Assembly: GCA_003833135.1 (NCBI GenBank)
Contig: QZLH01000031.1
Location: 1 to 64,000 of the forward strand
Direction of reading: 5' to 3'
Length of the DNA: 64,000 bases
Origin: Oehlia diaphana
Lineage: Eukaryota > Glomeromycota > Glomeromycetes > Glomerales > Glomeraceae
This document shows, one piece after another, positions 1 to 42,960 of this stretch (within the stretch, counting starts at the first letter, position 1; the number at the start of each line of letters is the position of its first letter). The position numbers and the translations under genes were made by a program. The notes under the pieces were generated by a model. That model saw only the letters and a list, made by a program, of their open reading frames with translations, made no database searches and was not told the origin of the DNA.

Positions 1-243
1 AATGATATACACCTGATTTATCGGAATATTATAGTCATATCGGGATGCTTAGATTCCTCCTGGTTTTGGCATTAAACTTACCGATATTCTCTAATCTGAT
101 AGCCATGTTATTTATCCCTGATTTACGCCAAAAATCGGTTAAATTTCATATAGGCCTGCCAGATTCTATTCAAAGCGGAATCGATGGAAAAACATAGGGC
201 TATCAGGTAATTGAAAATCACCTGATAGCCCTTTATTCGACCT
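1..243. other. No gene recognised; 5' flank of the retrotransposon fragment
   Basis: No coding frame here continues into the retrotransposon ORF; the frame used downstream is closed by a stop at 73-75. The only structure I see is the perfect inverted repeat at 196-232, just before the coding similarity begins. Confidence 0.4.
196..232. repeat. Perfect 13-bp inverted repeat with 11-nt loop
   Basis: Arms AGGGCTATCAGGT (196-208) and ACCTGATAGCCCT (220-232) are exact reverse complements. The hairpin lies at the apparent 5' truncation point of the LINE fragment. It could be a remnant of an earlier element or a structure linked to the truncation; I cannot tell which. Confidence 0.75.
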
Positions 244-1419
244 GTGAAATACAATGATATGGCAGACACCCTGGCCAAAAATGGTCGTGACTTACATGAC
301 CCTATTTTGATTAATCATAAATTTTTTATCTCATCATCTTTGGGTTTTATTAATTATAATAATATATATATAGTCGATCAAAATATTCGAAAATGGAGTA
401 ATGTACCTATACATTCACAAATTTTCAATATGGCCATGAATAATTTCCCGTTAAGACCTATCAACTATTTAATACGGGAAGGTCGTATCGATTGGTCATA
501 TACAAAAAAATGGATTAACCACAACCCGACAGACACTTCAACATCCGACAAGTTATGAAAAATCCATGCAGAAAAAGTCAAAAAATCCACATTTAACTAT
601 GCTACGGGTGATACACTTCGACGTAATTACCCAAACTTATATCCACCAGGCCAAATCTTATGTACAAATTGCAATATATACGAGGATACAAACGTACACA
701 TAGGTTTATGTCCATCACACCGATCAAATATTTCAGCCATTTTAAATGAATACAAACAAAAACTTTCTGTTTTAATTAAAACAAAAAACACCAGTAGTTT
801 CACCTTCGATATAGACTACAATATCAACAACTCCAACATGTTCAAACTATTACCTGACACGATAAACAAAGTGTTATTACAACAAACTAATCCAGCAACC
901 CCGCATGATGGTACATATATACCGAGAGAACAACCGTGGATTTTACTTTTATATCACCTAATCCCGGCAGACTTAACTGAATTATTCTATATGTACTTCG
1001 GTCAACAAAAACTTCGTGACCAACTATTAATACAATATGTTGCTGATCTTACTGCAGCTCTAAAAATGGCTACTTGGATGGTACGAGCTCGAAATTTTAA
1101 AAAATGGGAGAAATCCCTAAATATCACTTCAAAGAAAAAGAAACACTATCAACGACACAAAATATGTAATTCGAAAAACACTTCAAATATAATTCATTCT
1201 AATACGACTAATACAAGTTCACGAGGCCGTTATTCAGCCTATTATTACAATAAATCCTTACCTTACTTCAAACATTTAGTCACCCTTGATGACTCCGCCA
1301 GTATACGGTGGACTACCTGTAATTTTTTGCATAGTGGAACTTGGGAATCTTATAGAGACACTCTATCGTTCAATAATTTTGATTATTTACCTGATCTTTC
1401 TTTCATCCGATCCCCATAG
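244..1419 (+). pseudogene. LINE-type retrotransposon ORF2 C-terminal part, RNase H tail plus CCHC-like region, one nonsense codon
   Basis: One reading frame runs from 244 to 1419 and is broken only by TGA at 556-558; the residues after it continue the same protein, so this is a decayed single ORF. The first residues, YNDMADTLAKNG, match the end of an RNase H domain of a non-LTR retrotransposon polyprotein. After the stop a zinc-binding pattern CTNCNIYEDTNVHIGLCPSH is visible, then a basic C-terminal tail. The reverse transcriptase and endonuclease are absent, which is typical of a 5'-truncated copy. The LINE assignment rests on these motifs and on the A-rich 3' end that follows; the exact clade is not determined. 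Confidence 0.75.
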
Positions 1420-1665: not shown

Positions 1666-2378
1666 TGTGATGTAACGATAGAGGGAATAACTAATAAGGG
1701 AAAAGGAAAGAGGAAAAGCGAGGACACCAACCCATACAATCCAACCATCAGTAAATTCTTTGGTGCATAGATCCGTATGTATTCCATAAATTACTATAGA
1801 TCCTTAGAGATCCAGTATTTTATGGATTCCTTAAAAATTCTTTAATAAATCTTAAGAATCTTTTAGGATTCTATAAATTATAGGATTTTTAAAGTTTCCT
1901 AATAAAAAAACTGTAAGGATTCTTTATTTTTAAAGTTTCGCGTAAAATGATCTATAAATCTGTGTTACAAAAATCATTTGCGAAACAAATTTATTTCAAA
2001 GTCATATGGCTTACCGCTTTTAAAAAAAGAAAAAAAAAATATTAATCTTATTAATGAAGCTTTTCCCCTTCATCGCGCATAATTTCCCCTTTCCCTTCGC
2101 ATTTTCTTTATCTTTTCCCTTCACACGTTTCTTTCTTTCCCCCTTTTACGCGTTCTTTCTGTACATTCTTTACCTCCCTCTTCACGCGTTCTCTTCCCCT
2201 TTCACATGTTCTTTCTTTATTTCCTTTGAATTTTTTTCCCTCCCATTCATTCACGTTAATAGAATATACCTATTTTTTGGAAAATGACTGTTGTATTTTA
2301 TTTTTCAAGTTAACAGTTAACTTTTTCGAAACTTTTTTTTTAAAGAAAATCTTTCTAGCGTTTTTTCCATTTTATAGG
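1666..2378. other. Intergenic: AT-rich segment and CT-rich tract
   Basis: No gene. At 1800-1925 several AGGATTC/GGATTCC-type words recur, resembling the words at 3745-3895 beyond the array. From about 2054 to 2290 the plus strand is almost pure pyrimidine with imperfect repeats of CGCGTTCTTTCT and CACATGTTCTTTC. The Phe/Pro-rich ORF it spells is most likely a composition artefact. Confidence 0.5.
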
Positions 2379-3520
2379 TCTCTTGCTCCTGTCAATTTCC
2401 AGGATCTAGGTGCGTATGGGTGTGTAGTGTGTGATATATGTGAGTGTGGGTGACAAAAATTATGACAAAAAGTTAATATTAACATTTTTTAGGCGGCTCT
2501 TCAGCATTTGAACACGGCATTTCAGTAGGTATATTTTCTTTATTTATTTTAACGAACTTTACTAATTGTTCGTTTTTTGCTTTTTTCTAGGATTTTTTTC
2601 GAGTCTCTAGATATGGAAACGTGGTAATTAGAAAATCTAAAAGTTTTTTTTGATTTTAACGAACATTTCTAATTGTTCGTTTTATTCTTTTTTAGGTATT
2701 TTTTTGAGTCTCTGGACGTGGAAATGGGTAAGTAGAAAAGAATCTGGTTTTTATCATTTCTAATTGTTGTTTTTCATTTTTTAGGTCTCAAGACGCGTGG
2801 GGATCTAGTAAGTATAAAAAAACTTTTATAATTTTTTTGTTTTAATTTAACGAACTAACTGTTTATTTCTTTTTTTAAGTGAGTTTTCAAGTCTCTGAGC
2901 ATGGGAGATCTGGTAAAGTAAAATAAAATTTTATTTTTCGGTTTTTTATTTTAACAAACATTACTAATCGTTCATTTATTTTCTTCTTTTTAGGCAGTTT
3001 TCGGGTCTTTCAAAAACTTTTTTTTCTAATGAACATTACTAATTGTTCATTTTTTTTTTCTTTTTTTAGGCGTTTTGTTCAATTTGGAATATCGGTAAAT
3101 AAAAAAAAAAATTTCGATTTTTTTTTACATTAACGAATATTACTAACTTCGTTTTATTTATTTTATTTTTTTTTTAAGGTAATTTTTTAAATCTCTCTTA
3201 ATGTAGGACCAATAAGTAAAAAATATAATTTTGCATTTTTTTTATACCGACGAACATTACTAACCGTTCATTTATTTTATTTTTTTAGGCCGTTTTTCAA
3301 GTCTCTTTTTTTATATTAACAAATATTATTAATTATTTGGTTTGTTTTCTTTTTGTTAGCCGATTTTTTGGTTCTCTTTTAACGTGAGACCGGTAAATAA
3401 AAATAATTTTTTTTTCGTTTTTTATATAGTTGAACATTGTTAACTGTTCAGTTTGTTTATTTTAGATGACTTTTCGAGTCTCTCTTAACGCAGGACCGGC
3501 GAATAAAAAAATGTAATCTT
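2379..3520 (+). repeat. Degenerate tandem array of about 12 intron-like units (70-117 bp period)
   Basis: Each unit has the same order: a short core related to TTTTCGAGTCTCTGGACGTGG, a 5' splice-like GGTAAGTA, a T-rich stretch, the inverted repeat AACGAACA...TGTTCGTT, and a pyrimidine tract ending TTTTTTAG. The loop of the inverted repeat carries TTACTAAT/C, like a branch point. Copies of the inverted repeat or its equivalent start near 2551, 2658, 2750, 2849, 2953, 3028, 3132, 3249, 3318 and 3429. All units point the same way. No reading frame is conserved across the cores, so protein coding is unlikely. It may be an amplified intron-exon block, a minisatellite or a transcribed non-coding locus. 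Confidence 0.7.
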
Positions 3521-4769
3521 TTTTTTCAATTTTACTTTATTTGATATTTGATATTAGATATCGGCAACCTCTTAATATTATTTCTTTCGAGGGACAAGTG
3601 GGAAGTTTTTTATCATTATTTACAAATGTTTTAGTCTGTAATAGAATATATTCTTTAATGCATTTTATGTAATAAAATATATAATAATATTTTTAAGCAA
3701 ATGAAAATACATATGAAGTGAATAATTATTAAGTAAATAAATTAAATCCTTAAGGATTCCGTTAATGGTAAACCTTAGATCCTTAAGGATTCTATAGAAG
3801 TTTTTTCAATAGGGAATCCTCGTTGGTGGGAAAGGTTCCTTAGGGATCCTTATTAATTACGGGATTTTTGGAATCCCTAGGGATCCACGTCCCAAAAAAT
3901 TTACTGATGCAACCTACGCACCTAAAAGAAGATATAAAAAAAAAAGAAGACCTATACTTTATAAGAAAACTAATGTTCGTTAATATAAAAAACTGAACTA
4001 CTATCTACTAGTATCCCAAGTCGAAAAAAAGTCGAAAAAAAATTATTGAGACTCGAAATTGGATATATTTATATTATATACTCACGTTAAACGTTAAGAT
4101 TGTATTACATGACTATTACATGTCACAATGAATAAAGAATGATTTTTTTTATTCATATGACTGATATGAGTAATATACTGTATGTAATATATTTATCGCC
4201 GAAATTTTATAGATTTATATTTTATATTCAGATTGCCATCGAATTTTTACATCAGTTTTTAAGTCGGCATCACTAGGAATATCGGATATAATATTTTACA
4301 TATATAATATCATAGTATTTTCTCAAGCGTTTTGTGATATGATTCATTACTAATATGTAAATAATTTAACGATTCTGGGATTATTGGTATGAACGAACGA
4401 ACCATAATATTAATAAGATTTACTAACTTGTCCCCTGAGTTAAATAACCAGGGTTAAATCACTCCCCTCTAAAATTTATATTTTATATCAATCATTTTTT
4501 AAAAAAAAAATTATTTGTGTTATTATTCATTTCGCTTTATATATATATATTTTATTTATTTGGATATTATAGAACACAATGAACAAGTTTTCTTACATTT
4601 TTGACAATGACTTTTTTTTTTTTTTTTTGAAAATTATATAATTATATAAAACTAACTAGTAGGTGTTAAATCACCCAGGTTAAATCACCCTGGATTATAA
4701 TTAATACTTTATTACGTTCCGTATTTCTAGTAACACACTCGTGGTACTTAAGGCCGGGATAATGTGAGA
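3521..4769. other. Intergenic, AT-rich, with palindromes and short direct repeats
   Basis: No gene seen. Perfect palindromes AATCCTTAAGGATT (3745-3758) and ATCCTTAAGGAT (3779-3790) are followed by several GGATCC/GGAATCCC words up to 3890. The word GGTTAAATCAC occurs near 4450 and twice near 4665-4690, bracketing a poly-T-containing segment, which may be a small degenerate element. A reversed copy of the intron-like unit lies inside and is listed separately. Confidence 0.45.
3950..4065 (-). repeat. Inverted, isolated copy of the intron-like unit
   Basis: Read on the minus strand this stretch contains the core word TTTCGAGTCTC (near 4047-4057), then TTTTTTATATTAACGAACATTAG (near 3968-3990), in the same order as units of the array at 2379-3520 but in opposite orientation and about 430 bp away. 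The resemblance is in two separate words with correct order and spacing, so I call it a diverged copy with moderate confidence. Confidence 0.5.
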
Positions 4770-15745: not shown

Positions 15746-18700
15746 TTACTTGCTTTGCTTACTTTCAATATTATCTAATTTTTTCATGAATACTGTTAAT
15801 AGTTCTTGCATGCTATTTATAGTATTTTGTACATCAGTTATTTGATTAATATTTTGGTCCATGTTAACTAATCTATCATTAACTGTACGTTGAAAATCTT
15901 TAAAAGTTTCATCTAAAGGTAAAGAAGAACCCGGTACAATATTACCATCATCCGTGATGGAGGATATTGATGAATTAGTATCTTTTTTATCCATTTCATA
16001 TTTTAATAAAGAATATTTATCATTTGAATCCTCCTGAAATCTATATCTTTTATATGATGCCTTATTTTCATATCTTTGATATATACAACCTTTGAATTGT
16101 TTTCTATCTTCTGTCCATTCTTCAACACTTTTTGAATGTCCCACGTAAAATATAAATTGTGGATCTGGCTCTGGCGGCCAAAATCTTATATCTTCTAATG
16201 CTTCGTAATCAGAGATAAGAGTTGCTCTATATCTTAATAATGCATCTCTACCTTTTTCTGCCGCTTCTTCGTATACACCACTATTTTTTTTAATTAAAAA
16301 AGAATTTATTTTAATATTTGTTAAAGTATAAAAAGAAAAAAATTATTGTTGATGATGTCTCTCGAAGTTTCATCCTAAAATTTATCGCCATGGCCTCATC
16401 AAATAATACTTAAATGAAAGACTAATGAACGTAACCCTAGCGTTATATGGTAATGACATGGCGGTAAATTATAAAATTCCAAAAAAAAAATTATATATAG
16501 CATTACCTTCGCCGTCCACAACTTTTTAATAAAAATAATTACTAATCCAAGAAAACATCAATCACAACCAAACTTTAAATAAGACAATATAAAATAGGAA
16601 AAGGTAACTTACCCCATAAAAGCAATTAACATATTTTGTAATATAGTAACTATAAAGACACTTCCCAATAATGATAAAACTTCAACGGCCCAATAATTCC
16701 AGTCATCTCTTTGTGGCCATTCACCATTAATCCAGAAATACGTTGCTTCAACTGATGATAAAAAATTTGAAAACGGGTTATCTGAAGCTGATGAAGGATC
16801 AAATTGTGAATCCATTTCCATATCTATTGGTTCATGTGTTGTAGTATTCACTATGGAAAAACTATTAACTTTTTGTTTTACGGTATTTAGATCCGGATTT
16901 GATAATAATAAGAAAACTAAAAATAAACAAATAAATAAAATAAGTTAAAATATATTTATATTTATACTTATTTACAAAAAACATTATGTGAAACTTTAAC
17001 ATACAGGCATGAGCGAAAGCCATGATTACACAGGCCATAAATATAAGGAAGGGAAATCTTTAATAGAAAAGAATTCTTTTTAGCATTAAAACAATTTTTT
17101 AAAAAAAACAAATAAATACTTTGAATGTATTTTGACTCACACTGTAGAGAATATTATAATGACATAATAAATGTATATAGCCATTTCTTTAAAAAAAAAA
17201 TAAATAAATAAAAATCGTTAATAATTTTTACTATAACATATTTTAAAATAAAATTTAAAATAAAAAAATAATGTCATATACCTGATAATAATCTTAAATA
17301 CAAAAGCTATAATATAACAAATAAATAAATTATTTAGTTGTTTTTTTTATATATAAACAAGATAATTTTGTTACTTTTTTTTTTACTTACCATTTCACAC
17401 CAAAGTAATAACATCGTAAAAGAAATGCAAACAATAATTCCTGTACTAGTTTGAACCTTTGCAAATCCGTCAGAAAGTTGAAATGAACTTGCCACAAAAA
17501 TTGACATAACTATGCAAGGTGTAATGATTGAAATTATATCAAATAAATTGCTAACATTTAGAGATGCTCTTAAACCATGATGCCATGCTTGCTTAACTTC
17601 AACAGCTATTAAATAATAAGCCAGATAATAAAAACACATCATCACACAAATCAAAAAAGTCCTAAGATTTCCTGTGACTTCAAGTCTTGACATGTAGGCC
17701 CAACTTATTACACCAAAACATACCGCATATGCTATAAATGCAAGAAATATTTGTAAAAAATAATTTCTTGCTTGCCTCCATCTAAAATCTATGACTGCTT
17801 CCATCGCAGGATTATCAAAAATATTATTGTCTTTTTCATACCTAACAACTTGTACAAAGGGACTTAATAAATTTCTATCTTCTCTACCTATTATATAACC
17901 TCTCGGAATAATAATTATTTTTAAAAGTCTTAATAAATTTGATTTCCAAGTATACTTTGCCCGAATTTTTGGAATATTGTCAACCGTAAAATTTGGTAAT
18001 CTAAATATAAAATACACAGTTATTAGTCTTTACTTTTTTTTTAAAAAAAAAACAATCATAATTATAATTATAATTATAACTCACGGAACAACTCTTAAAG
18101 CCACAGGAGGAGGAGCACGATCATTATCAAAATTATCAATAAAGCTCGTAATATATCTTGGAAATTTAATGATTATAAATTCAAATATATTTTGGAGTAC
18201 TGGCTTATGATTTTTATCTGAAACTAGTTTAGTATTGGGTTTAAAAGCCTTAAAATCTTGCGTTTTATTTCTTCTTGGTTTGCTGTGTTCAGGAATTATT
18301 TCAGACGGATCATATTGTGTAAGTTCCTTGTCGGCAAAACAATCTTTATAGAATAATGGTTTTACATAATAATCTAAATTTTTTGAAAAAAGAGATTAAA
18401 ATTATTGAAAATAATAATATAATCATTACTAATTATAATTAATACCAACCCAAATTGTATCTATACAATAATGGCAGTGCTTTTGAAATTGTCGTCATCC
18501 AGCCAATGTGATGTAATGCATTTTCAGAATAATATTCTAATAAATAACCAACCATAACAGCATCCTTTCTTTCTTTGTCTATTATAAAAGAAAAACTTTT
18601 AATAATAATTAGGATAAATTTCAAAATAGAAAAATTGGCACATCGTTTACCTTTACAGTATTCAATAGCCCATTCTAAATCCGTGCTTGGTCTCACATTG

Positions 18701-21700
18701 TTTTTGGGATTCTTTTTAATTTTCCTCTCTTTTTTTTTCTTCTTCTTACATGATATGAGTGCGAAAAACCATAACATTATTGCACGTATAAGAGAGAATA
18801 ATTGATGAAGAAAAGTTTTGGATTCCAATTTCACTTTTATATGTCGTTCTGGTTCAGCCTCACTTATCCATTGTTTTGCTTTTGGCAAATGTAATATTTG
18901 CTTATTTTTATGAGAATCTAGTTTAATGTCATTTTCTTTTTTCTTTTTCTTTGATTTTTTACCATTTTTGGATTCTTCAAGCGTCATTTCGCCAAAAAGA
19001 ATAAATTTAATTAAATAATTACAACCACCTCGTATTAAATAGGACATTACATTGTATCGAACATCCATCAACTTAAAGATTTCAGGCTTTTTCTTTACAA
19101 ATCTCCATACAATTCTATTTGTATTTTCTACCAATCGTTCAAATTCTACCATTTTTTTATAATCTATTATTTTGTTTTTTCGATTATTCAAATGTTCAAG
19201 AGCTTTACAAGCGTGTAAAACCGGAGTTACATGGCCGTCAGCATAAGGAAATGAAAGAGTTTCCGTATTATTTACAACTCTACTACCTTCATCATATTTC
19301 CAATATACTTTAAGAACAAATGAATTATCACCAATCCACAAATCTTTTATCTGTAATCTTGAATTATCGATATCATGTTCAAATGGAATATTATTAGCCC
19401 AAATATATTCAAGAACAGGTTCTTTCTTTTGTTGATTGCCCCCTTTTTTATCAGATTCTTTCTGCTTTGGTAACTTCCGCCAAATTTGCACTGTACTATG
19501 TCCAATTATAAGTTGTAACGTTTCGTCCTCATCAAGAAATACTGAAGTACGATGATAATTATTCATATAAATCCATGGTTCCTTATTGTTAACAATAACC
19601 TTATAAATTCCGGAAGTTCTGAATTCTTTACGACAATATACTTTGTGCAATTTTACATCAACTTCATCATTATTAGCGTATACACATGACATTTTGTCTT
19701 TTTGATCTTGTGTAGCTTTGAAATCATAATAAATATCACATCCAAAATCTCTCGTTAAATCGCTTTCCTCTCCTTTTACAAGGTTTACAAAACCATCATG
19801 CTCTAAAATTGAGAACACACTACCATCATCTTTCATATGATAAAGTGCACCAGGAACTCGTGCCAAATGAGAATGATAATTTTCTTTTGAAGGAAATAAA
19901 TCACCAGTCATTCCAGTACGAATAGCATTATCCGCTGAACTAAATAAATCCCATACCATAATTTTCGTCACAACAGACTCAGCAATATCTTTACAAGAAC
20001 TTCTTCTCCTTGCCATTCTCGGCTTTAAAAGATTGTCATTTTTTACTTTTTCTTCTTTCTCCTCAATAACTAACTTAACTTGTTCAACCTGTTTCATTTT
20101 ATCATCTGAATTCTTTTTTTCTTCTTCCATAATTGTAGAAAGCTTGTCATAATTCATATCATTTTCAATCGATTTTTGTTTATAATCTGAATTATTTACT
20201 AATATATCGTGTTTCTCTCCATTCACGGGTCTAATATCTTCCTTCGTACAAGTCTCTTCAGTAATTATAAGTAATTTTTCATCACTCTCAATAAATTCCA
20301 AATAAAGAATTTTTGTCTCAGTCCCAAATTCTTTTACCCCTATATCAAGACCATTTTCTATCCAAAACAAAGTTACAGATCTTTCACCATTACTACAAGC
20401 GATTAATTGTTTATTTTGTGAAACTGCAAATACAGATGATACATTTTTTGAAGTATGCGACACGGTTTCATCATGACGAATTATAAAAATTTGTTCTTGT
20501 TCCATTGTTGAAAGATTGTACATATCTATCGTATGAACACTATCTTTATATTGGTCCACAAAGAAATAATGATGATAAATACATGATAAAAGACGATCCA
20601 TACAATGTTTTGATCTATACCAAGATTTTAATTCTTTTTCTAACCTTTTGGGAAAAGAAAACTTTTCTTCTTTTATTTTACTATTAGAATTATTAGGAAT
20701 AGAATAATTAACTTTGTAAATTCCTTCAGCATTAATTATAAAGCAACTTGTTTTGATAAACATTTCGGTTAAATATTTATGTTCAGTTTGTTCATAATAT
20801 TGAACGTAATGATTATTAGATTCTTTTTTAACAAACATTACTATTCCAGCAACATCATGACAATTGTATTGTTTGATACAAGCAGGCTTTTGAATTAAAC
20901 TATTATATCTTAATCTAATACGATATATTGCAGTTTTTCCTTCAGTTAAATCGGGATGAGATGGTTTAATCTTTGGTTCGTCATCAACTTCTTCTTCTTC
21001 TTCTTCTTCTTCATTATAATCTATTTCATATTCATCATTATTATATCTATTTCTATTTGGATAAAGACGATTAATTTCTTCTTCATCTTCTTCATTCACT
21101 TTTTTTTTCATGTCTGCTTCAATTACAGCAGATATTGCAACAAAAATGACATGTTCACCCTGATGTTCCATCTTATTTGATATTGCTAAAGACCACGATG
21201 GAAAACTTCTAGATGTAACACCTGGTATGTGATCCTCTTCCTTTCTTTTACTTTCTGTGCTAGTTCTATTAGATTTTTCATCCTCTTGAAAATTTTTTCT
21301 TCCAGAACCGTATTTTTTATCAAATGCTTCACTATGCATATATACATGTAATGCTCCATATTCAATTCGGTAAGGGACCAAATTATCATTTTCAGATGAA
21401 TTAGATGAACTTATTTTTGGAATTTCCACGAAGTTATTTGCGTCTTCCTCTGAAATAGAACTTTTATCGAAAAAATTTATAGTTTGATCTGATTCAAAAA
21501 TTTTAAATTCAAGTCTTTCTAATGATAATAAAATAAATAAAATAAATAAGAATTTAAATAAACATTCTTTTTTTTTTTGTATCGTGACACAAAATAAAGC
21601 AGCTTTATAAAAAAGAAAACACTTACTACAATTAAGAGTACATATATATTGACCGTCAGGACTTACCGCAACATGAGAAGCGAATTTTTCATTTGGGTCG

Positions 21701-21990
21701 TATGAAATATAATCCTCATTAACAGGAGACATAGTCATAGATTGTATATGACTGTGTGATTTTTTTTGAAAAATATTACTAATAATTGAACGTAAACTTC
21801 TTGAACTTCCATCTGATTGATCCGAATTATAAGAAGGTTTTTTCAATTTATAATGATCATTATTATTAATAGCTAATTCTGTATCATTATTTATATTAGA
21901 AACATGTTTTAACTCGTAAGAACTTTTCTTTTTAAGAATCGAATTTCTAGTAGAATCACTAAGATTACTTATATTCTTTTTTTCAGACAT
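15746..21990 (-). CDS. TRP-like six-transmembrane cation channel with large N-terminal repeat region (1740 aa, 10 exons)
   Basis: Exons on the minus strand: 21990-21627, 21518-18651, 18578-18450, 18373-18085, 18000-17391, 17306-17282, 17186-17141, 17057-17005, 16916-16613 and 16280-15746; all phases agree (5223 nt). Residues 1-70 are Ser/Lys-rich. Residues about 80-1000 include SPDGQYICTLNC and other WD/beta-propeller-like strands, with acidic linkers near 300 and 610. Hydrophobic segments S1-S4 lie at about 1300-1420, S5 at about 1423-1465 (FPFLIFMACVIMAFAHA), and S6 reads LGSVFIVTILQNMLIAFMGG, a TRP/polycystin-type pore helix. The pore region holds FSNFLSSVEATYFW. The tail has a coiled coil (VNMDQNINQITDV). 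The likely role is a non-selective or calcium-permeable channel; ligand and membrane are unknown. The GTTGGT donor at 18449 is atypical, and the last intron (332 bp) is much longer than the others. Confidence 0.85.
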
Positions 21991-41924: not shown

Positions 41925-42228
41925 AAAAGAAACTGCCAGAACTAATAATTCTGATATTTTTACATGTATAATCAAAAAAAAATACTAAAATTATCAGTTT
42001 TAGCATTTTTACATGTATAATCAAAAAAAAATGCTAAAATTATCAGTTTTAGCATTTTTACATGTACAATTAAAAAAAAAATGCCAAAACTAATGATTCT
42101 GGCATTTTTATATGTAAAATCGAAAAAAATGCCAAAACTATTAAAATGCCAAAACTAATAATTTTGGCATTTTATATGTAAAATCAAAAAAAAAATACCA
42201 GAACTAATTATTCTAGCGTTTTTACATG
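41925..42228. repeat. Tandem hairpin units, array 1
   Basis: About six units of 45-60 bp. Each is an inverted repeat such as AATGCCAAAACTAAT/ATTCTGGCATT followed by TTTACATGTAAAATCAAAAAA, itself containing the palindrome TTTACATGTAAA. Confidence 0.8.
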
Positions 42229-42719: not shown

Positions 42720-42960
42720 TGTATTCCAGGATCTTGTTTTTACATGTAAAATCAAAAAAAATGCTAAAACTATTAATTTTGGCATTTTTACATGTAAAAT
42801 TAAAAAGAAAAATACCAGAACTAATTATTCTGGTGCTTTTATATGTAAATTCAAAAAAAAAAATGCTGAAACTATCAGTTTCAGCATTTTTACATGTAAA
42901 ATTAAAAGAAAAAATGCCAAAACAAATAGTTTCAGCATTTTATATATAAAAATAAAAAGT
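42720..42960. repeat. Tandem hairpin units, array 2
   Basis: Four to five more copies of the same unit (AATGCTGAAACTATCAG/TTTCAGCATTTTTACATG). Because units are multiples of three in places, an artefactual repeat ORF appears across them; I do not regard it as a gene. Confidence 0.75.

What the first reader, a model, noticed from the sequence alone, without database searches (positions are those of the whole stretch)
2379..3520. Tandem array of intron-like units with a hairpin that displays the branch-point word
About 12 same-direction units of 70-117 bp each carry a donor-like GGTAAGTA, a TTACTAAT/C word in the loop of an 8-bp inverted repeat (AACGAACA/TGTTCGTT), a pyrimidine tract and a TTTTTAG acceptor, separated by 25-40 bp cores related to GAGTCTCTGGACGTGG. 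Several parts of a splicing signal set are kept while the rest drifts, which is not what a neutral minisatellite would do. It could be a tandemly amplified intron-exon block, an introner-like element array, or a non-coding RNA locus with many micro-exons. I know of no description of this arrangement, but I could not search.
Basis: partly seen in the sequence, partly recalled or inferred. Interest (0 to 1): 0.75.

Follow-up and report, generated by a model that had tools for sequence, protein, structure and literature searches.

The report
Decayed tandem intron–micro-exon array
In the genome of a root-symbiotic fungus (Rhizophagus), this stretch is one worn copy of a dispersed family of repeats built of tiny non-coding exon-like pieces and short intron-like pieces whose splicing branch point sits in a small hairpin; it looks like the remains of heavily intron-packed units rather than a working gene.

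Summary
Only 2 of 10 keep the perfect 8-bp stem; two lost the end of the core and the donor. The host is a Rhizophagus. The array is not unique: five DNA queries match 112 contigs of the 108.8-Mb assembly, and arrays that I read share leader exons or a 3' tail. The palindrome is centred on the branch word in both subfamilies tested and is not enriched around such words elsewhere. Arms of an intron match each other even when transitions are hidden, so pairing was kept or regenerated in the past; within a subfamily covariation is weak or absent. The 29 cores tested are non-coding; 16 of 68 profile-aligned donors lack GT/GC; in three recent duplicate pairs the arrays are not clearly more conserved than their flanks. 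Best reading: an old tandem expansion of a spliced, non-coding micro-exon/intron module, dispersed in larger segments and now mostly decaying. Transcription and splicing could not be tested. My nine literature searches found no description of this arrangement.

The parts
2111..2313 (+). CT-rich stretch upstream of the array, shared with another array locus (L012)
   Evidence: blastn 77.9% over 213 nt to L012 4490-4691; read
2493..2524 (+). leader exon; related exons lead the arrays in L012, L014 and L018
   Evidence: side-by-side reading
2525..2590 (+). intron-like unit 1, donor GTAGGT, hairpin 2551-2574 with one mismatch
   Evidence: fold from 2526: -6.6 kcal/mol, z -1.68
2591..2695 (+). core and intron-like unit 2, donor GTAATT at 2624, perfect 8-bp hairpin 2658-2681
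   Evidence: fold from 2625: z -2.54
2696..2784 (+). core and intron-like unit 3, donor GTAAGT at 2728, left arm of the hairpin lost
   Evidence: branch hairpin absent from fold
2785..2879 (+). core and intron-like unit 4, donor GTAAGT at 2808, hairpin loop shortened by deletion
   Evidence: branch hairpin absent from fold
2880..2993 (+). core and intron-like unit 5, donor GTAAAG at 2913, stem with mismatches
   Evidence: branch hairpin absent from fold
2994..3069 (+). unit 6, end of core and donor deleted, perfect 8-bp hairpin 3028-3051
   Evidence: z -4.98
3070..3178 (+). core and intron-like unit 7, donor GTAAAT at 3095
   Evidence: z -0.56
3179..3288 (+). core and intron-like unit 8, donor ATAAGT at 3212 (first G lost)
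   Evidence: z -0.22
3289..3359 (+). unit 9, end of core and donor deleted; stem differs from the consensus on both sides at two pairs (by reading)
   Evidence: z -1.11
3360..3465 (+). core and intron-like unit 10, donor GTAAAT at 3393
   Evidence: z -0.37
3466..3526 (+). last core and donor remnant GCGAAT at 3499; no branch hairpin follows

Best explanation
The array is a decayed member of a large dispersed family in this Rhizophagus genome. In the ancestor a short non-coding exon (about 30-40 nt) plus a short spliceosomal-type intron (about 57-98 nt) was duplicated head to tail many times inside a transcribed unit with its own leader exons and 3' tail. Each intron carried a donor, a branch word centred in a small hairpin, a U-rich tract and AG. 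Transcription would have given a pre-RNA in which the branch points were offered in apical loops and many micro-exons were joined into a non-coding RNA. Whole arrays were then copied elsewhere with flanking DNA and now mostly decay by C-to-T/G-to-A changes and deletions. Shown: the array, the dispersal, the centring of the palindrome, arm matching beyond transitions, non-coding cores (window type), donor loss, no clear extra conservation in recent duplicates. Inferred: transcription, splicing, the order of events, and what kept or remade the hairpin.
For: Dispersal: five DNA queries match 112 distinct contigs of 1672, the window's own included (counted in 82). Shared leader exons and 3' tail by reading. 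Signal set: in 76 profile matches the branch T and branch A are 74 of 74 each, 2 rows gapped; AG after pyrimidines follows in 70 of 76 (chance rate of that AG not measured). Conservation in the same profile: donor 0.86 (A/T) and 0.84 (G/C), hairpin 0.89 and 0.74, exon 0.70 and 0.58, spacer 0.76 (A/T only). Centring: perfect stems of 6 bp or more peak at one offset, 18% of 83 branch words in 9 L032-type arrays and 21% of 47 in 8 window-type arrays, against 1% in shuffles. Arm matching with transitions hidden: 187 introns, mean 7.11 against 6.06 (sd 0.11, maximum 6.35 of 400) when right arms are swapped within a locus; 829 control words elsewhere 5.51 against 5.49. Non-coding: stops in 14, 15, 13 of 29 cores by frame against 13.4, 13.1, 12.8 in shuffles; lengths 11, 7, 11 modulo 3. 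Decay: 16 of 68 donors neither GT nor GC; array identity 0.861, 0.942, 0.928 against flanks 0.892/0.905, 0.938/0.958, 0.906/0.957. Expansion before dispersal: 6 of 62 units in multi-unit loci have their nearest neighbour in the same locus; mean identity 0.676 within and 0.664 between loci.
Against: No RNA evidence. Inside one subfamily (23 introns) covariation is at most weak: cells paired reached by 18 of 500 shuffles, covariation score by 47, cells changed on both sides by 258, pairs changed on both sides by 415. Window-type arms: 269 of 336 pairs against 261 (sd 4.8) permuted, reached by 1279 of 20000; within locus by 4997; only the pair next to the loop matched clearly (1 of 5000). Template switching could make matching arms without RNA selection. 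Related introns are counted repeatedly, so the excess is not a probability, and with Watson-Crick pairs the control words also show a slight excess (3.29 against 3.245 within and 3.23 across pieces, sd 0.029). The conservation profile was built from and finds conserved units, which may favour its middle. Donor T2 is the least conserved donor base (0.64); two of the 16 deviant donors may be one-base alignment slips. The last branch position is A, not a pyrimidine, in 10 rows. In L032/L043, six script-picked introns (some mis-cut) show donor identity 0.967 of 30 sites, which would favour constraint, and branch-word identity 0.80 of 25, which would not. Nearest neighbours often fall on a few partial rows.
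Confidence: 0.57

Rival explanations
1. A living non-coding RNA family: some arrays are transcribed, spliced and selected today; the hairpins and micro-exons do work in the RNA.
For: Strong folds in some members (L047 intron -22 kcal/mol, z -5.93, with a 12-bp donor-side and a 7-bp branch-side hairpin; L050 z -3.95; L014 z -3.65); shared 3' tail; high donor identity in one recent pair, few sites.
Against: Three recent duplicate pairs show no clear extra conservation of arrays; frequent donor loss and deletions.
Confidence: 0.16
2. Decayed protein-coding gene with a repeated exon, like other tandem-repeat genes.
For: Some cores in L032 read as similar short peptides in one frame (my reading; not tested systematically).
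Against: Stops at chance level in all frames and mixed lengths for 29 window-type cores; longest ORF 78 aa in L043 and 73 aa in L047.
Confidence: 0.12
3. A DNA-level palindromic minisatellite; splice words are a by-product of AT-rich sequence and the palindrome is remade by template switching or recognised as DNA.
For: Palindromes also lie elsewhere in the repeats (donor side, some exon ends; reading); no clear covariation inside a subfamily.
Against: Complete donor-branch-tract-AG order at steady spacing; branch T and A 74 of 74 while neighbours vary C/T and A/G; the main palindrome peak lies on the branch word.
Confidence: 0.1
4. Introner-like elements that inserted one by one.
For: Similar introns at many loci with inverted-repeat structure, as others report for fungal introner-like elements (PMC8469720, passages).
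Against: The cores are homologous and repeated together with the introns; window-type cores are non-coding.
Confidence: 0.05

Closest known systems
Introner-like elements of fungi (PMC4457414) and introners (PMC9860276); passages seen
   Same: many similar short spliceosomal-type introns dispersed in one genome
   Different: here exon cores repeat with the introns in head-to-tail non-coding arrays; insertion into unrelated coding genes was not seen; the palindrome surrounds the branch word
Internally symmetrical stwintrons of Hypoxylaceae (PMC8469720); passages seen
   Same: proliferated fungal introns with symmetrical sequence
   Different: there terminal inverted repeats of 45-55 nt; here the main palindrome is about 20-24 nt and centred on the branch word
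Tandem exon arrays such as insect Dscam clusters (recalled, no call)
   Same: tandem duplicates of exon plus intron
   Different: coding, larger exons, chosen one at a time; here non-coding micro-exons
Unclassified repeats of Rhizophagus irregularis (PMC8647823; passages seen: 24% of that genome remains to be characterised)
   Same: same genus, repeats outside known classes
   Different: the passages that I saw do not describe this structure

Membership tests
U2-type spliceosomal intron | GT-AG (or GC-AG) ends | tested here: inconclusive
   donors GT 40, GC 12, other 16 of 68; 8 of 76 rows gapped; AG after pyrimidines in 70 of 76
U2-type spliceosomal intron | branch word YTRAY with fixed U and A | tested here: met
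   of 74 rows: Y 65 C and 9 T; T 74; R 70 A, 3 G, 1 T; A 74; last Y 42 C, 21 T, but 10 A, of 73
U2-type spliceosomal intron | removed from RNA | not testable with these tools
   no RNA data
Introner-like element | similar introns at many loci | tested here: met
Introner-like element | inserted in unrelated coding exons | tested here: not met
   cores homologous and repeated with the introns; window-type cores non-coding
Introner-like element | target duplications or terminal inverted repeats | not tested
   element ends not mapped
Symmetrical stwintron | terminal inverted repeats of 45-55 nt pairing the intron ends | tested here: inconclusive
   main palindrome peak at the branch word; no self-reverse-complement alignment was run; in 2 of 10 window introns the fold pairs the 5' end with the tract near the 3' end
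SP7-like effector gene | repeats that encode protein behind one conserved intron | tested here: not met
   an intron-like piece between every core, cores non-coding; the paper says a conserved intron precedes the first repeat (PMC11333574); that the repeats lie in one exon is my inference
Rfam families | score above the gathering threshold | tested here: not met
   6 loci scanned; 4 matches at E up to 1, all far below gathering scores

The most novel reading that the evidence does not exclude
A previously undescribed kind of intron-proliferating repeat: whole exon-intron modules multiply head to tail and then spread as arrays, and their introns present the branch point (and in one subfamily the donor as well) in RNA hairpins kept through compensatory change, in effect a non-coding RNA built of dozens of hairpin introns.
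Probability: 0.25. Interest if true: 0.85.

Novelty: new variant of a known kind. Interest (0 to 1): 0.58.

Why it matters
If spliced, these arrays would be a rare case in which introns multiply together with their exons, and in which a branch point is regularly shown in a hairpin loop with matching arms. That would give a natural test set for how RNA structure helps the spliceosome find the branch point, and for where new introns come from. It would also name part of the large uncharacterised repeat fraction of arbuscular mycorrhizal fungal genomes.

Tried and rejected
SP7-like effector gene: considered because SP7 has tandem repeats; rejected because here an intron-like piece separates every core and the cores are non-coding (PMC11333574, passages). 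Compensatory change inside the window subfamily: looked convincing by eye in three units, but 42 rows show mostly independent C/T and G/A changes. Pairwise double-change count: 29 of 250 changed pairs in ten array comparisons and 4 of 60 in the controls, 3 of those 4 from one palindromic repeat; not used as proof, because stems were counted from both sequences and palindromic CpG sites tend to change in step. Generality of branch hairpins in the genome: not found (11 of 288 TACTAA words in 226 kb outside arrays have stems of 5 bp or more, against 4.6% of 19145 permuted words; 829 words). Donor hairpin as a class: weak (at most 7% of 164 donor-like words at any offset in L032-type arrays and 12% of 33 in the window type, shuffles about 1%). 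Rfam and tRNA: nothing above threshold. Low-stringency all-against-all BLAST was mostly AT-rich noise, its output was cut, and it was not used. RNAalifold on 36 window-type hairpins: 4 pairs, -0.23 kcal/mol. Model R1 could not be run on the genome; model R2 was not used.

Rows left out: one search used 30 array regions (29 of the 44 regions fetched, plus the window; left out L013, L022, L024, L025, L026, L028, L031 and L035-L042); one search used 42 of 54 rows; one search used 29 of 30 segments, its exon ends were picked by a score that favours GT, and a few of its short cores are probably mis-cut.

Literature: 9 full-text searches and passages of 8 papers (PMC11333574, PMC3886924, PMC8786786, PMC9860276, PMC8469720, PMC4457414, PMC8647823, PMC10234402); no description of such arrays was seen, but only open-licence papers are held and no paper was read whole.

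Full report
What is there. The array runs from a leader exon at 2493-2524 to about 3526. Cutting after each acceptor gives ten branch sites with spacings of 69-117 bp. Five units keep an exact TTACTAAY, two keep the full 8-bp stem, one keeps an exact GGTAAGTA (reading), and two have lost the end of the core and the donor. The hairpin consensus does not occur in 100 shuffles of the window.

Where it is. The ORF at 18439-21990 (minus strand) is 87% identical over its whole length to a Rhizophagus irregularis protein and 97% identical over 75% of its length to one of R. diaphanus (where only 7979 candidates were scored). The assembly held for the window has 108.8 Mb in 1672 contigs.

It is a family. 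The window array matches 24 contigs, its own included. Queries with related arrays gave 8, 40, 34 and 40 contigs; the union is 112 contigs. Each has at least one DNA match to an array query at E up to 0.001. I fetched 44 regions and read 17 of them line by line, so the number of true arrays is not proven to be 112. In three queries only 40 candidates were scored, of 42, 102 and 50, so the counts are lower bounds. Leader exons are shared in order by L014, L018 and L029, and one of them also by L011, L012 and the window. L032, L043, L047 and L049 share a 3' tail after the last unit. Recent copies share 2-3 kb including flanks, so spread is by larger segments.

Anatomy. A unit is: U-rich tract and AG; a core, mostly 23-41 nt; donor; A-rich then T-rich spacer; branch word between inverted arms; U-rich tract and AG. 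The 29 window-type cores tested are non-coding by stops and by length; cores of the L032 type were not tested in this way. In the L032 type the donor often lies in or next to a second hairpin (reading); one L047 intron folds into two strong hairpins at -22 kcal/mol, z -5.93. As a class the donor hairpin is weak in the offset scan, at most 7% of 164 donor-like words at any offset, perhaps because donor types are mixed there.

The hairpin. Perfect stems of 6 bp or more peak at a single offset from the branch word: offset 0 in 18% of 83 words in nine L032-type arrays, offset +1 in 21% of 47 words in eight window-type arrays, against 1% in shuffles. In 226 kb outside arrays the same word is not in hairpins more often than other words. 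Is the pairing kept? Inside a subfamily the evidence is weak: arms vary by C/T and G/A, often at CpG, mostly independently on the two sides, with one pair next to the loop as an exception. R. irregularis methylates CG sites (PMC8647823, passages), so deamination is a likely cause here (inference). Between introns of different types the arms differ by transversions and small indels and still match. Coding bases as purine/pyrimidine hides transitions; then 187 introns from 30 array regions match their own other arm over 7.11 positions on average, against 6.06 (sd 0.11, maximum 6.35 of 400) when right arms are swapped within a locus. With Watson-Crick pairs the means are 3.83 against 3.41 (sd 0.09, maximum 3.71). 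The 829 control words show no purine/pyrimidine effect (5.51 against 5.49) and a slight Watson-Crick one (3.29 against 3.245, sd 0.03). Related introns are counted more than once, so the excess is not a probability. Either pairing was selected, or palindromes were remade by template switching.

Selection on splicing. Over 76 matches of a unit profile in 29 places, the branch T and A do not vary in the 74 rows that hold them; donor and hairpin are more conserved than core and spacer; but donors are GT in 40, GC in 12 and neither in 16 of 68, two of the 16 perhaps by a one-base slip of the alignment. In one recent duplicate pair (L032/L043) the array is more diverged than both flanks, and in two others (L033 with L041 and L042) it lies between its flanks. 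In the L032/L043 pair six script-picked introns gave donor identity 0.967 of 30 sites, AG 0.917 of 12 and branch word 0.80 of 25, against 0.847 between introns; these few sites point both ways. Of 62 units in loci with more than one unit, 6 have their nearest neighbour in the same locus (window 2 of 10, one of them without a usable identity); several neighbours are partial rows. So the tandem growth looks old and earlier than the dispersal, and constraint seems lost in most copies examined.

Reading. The best account is an ancestral non-coding transcription unit dense in short introns whose branch points sat in hairpins, multiplied as exon-intron modules, spread with larger segments and now mostly fossil. 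What is shown is the sequence pattern; transcription, splicing and the role of the hairpin are inferred. A living RNA, a decayed coding gene, a DNA-level palindromic satellite and one-by-one introners are the rivals; the last fits worst because the cores repeat with the introns.

Known kinds. It is built like spliceosomal introns and resembles introner-like elements in copy number, but fails their defining insertion into unrelated coding exons. Whether its introns have the end-to-end inverted repeats of symmetrical stwintrons (definition from PMC8469720) was not settled: the main palindrome is at the branch word, and in 2 of 10 window introns the fold also pairs the ends. I file it as a new variant of a known kind (proliferating spliceosomal-type introns), not as a member of either family.

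Changes on checking. The confidence of the best explanation was lowered from 0.58 to 0.57 and that of the living-RNA rival raised from 0.15 to 0.16, because the donor identity in the recent pair had been left out.

Noticed in passing
L047, L048, L049, L050 (arrays of the L032 type): Donor-side hairpins: GTAAGTTTYRCAAC...GTTGYRAAACTT after the donor, or exon end and donor forming a hairpin with the donor in the loop (CAAAGG-TAAAA-CCTTTG). Some exons look palindromic too.
   Followed up: partly
L010, L011, L014 and other arrays: GC donors (GCAAGT) recur in related arrays (reading); 12 of 68 profile-aligned donors are GC.
   Followed up: partly
window 1747-2008 and 3740-3876: Palindrome-rich dispersed repeats (ATCCTTAAGGAT type) flank the array on both sides; relatives lie in L013, and in L014 and L011.
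   Followed up: no
window 241-1419: Upstream of the array, a stretch with a 193-aa ORF (838-1419) looks like a degraded retroelement reading frame by eye; no Pfam hit.
   Followed up: no
L024 1848-1880 and L026 4951-4983: Two repeats alike at about 85% over several kb hold one branch-hairpin word each (RAACTTTACTAAAAGTTC), perhaps the same intron kind inside another repeat.
   Followed up: no
window 41956-42206 and 42738-42958: Tandem repeats of about 49-65 bp holding TTTTACATGTAAAA-like palindromes.
   Followed up: no
L032 and L047, downstream of the array tail: A further degenerate direct repeat around TTTTTGCAGAACTTT follows the conserved 3' tail.
   Followed up: no
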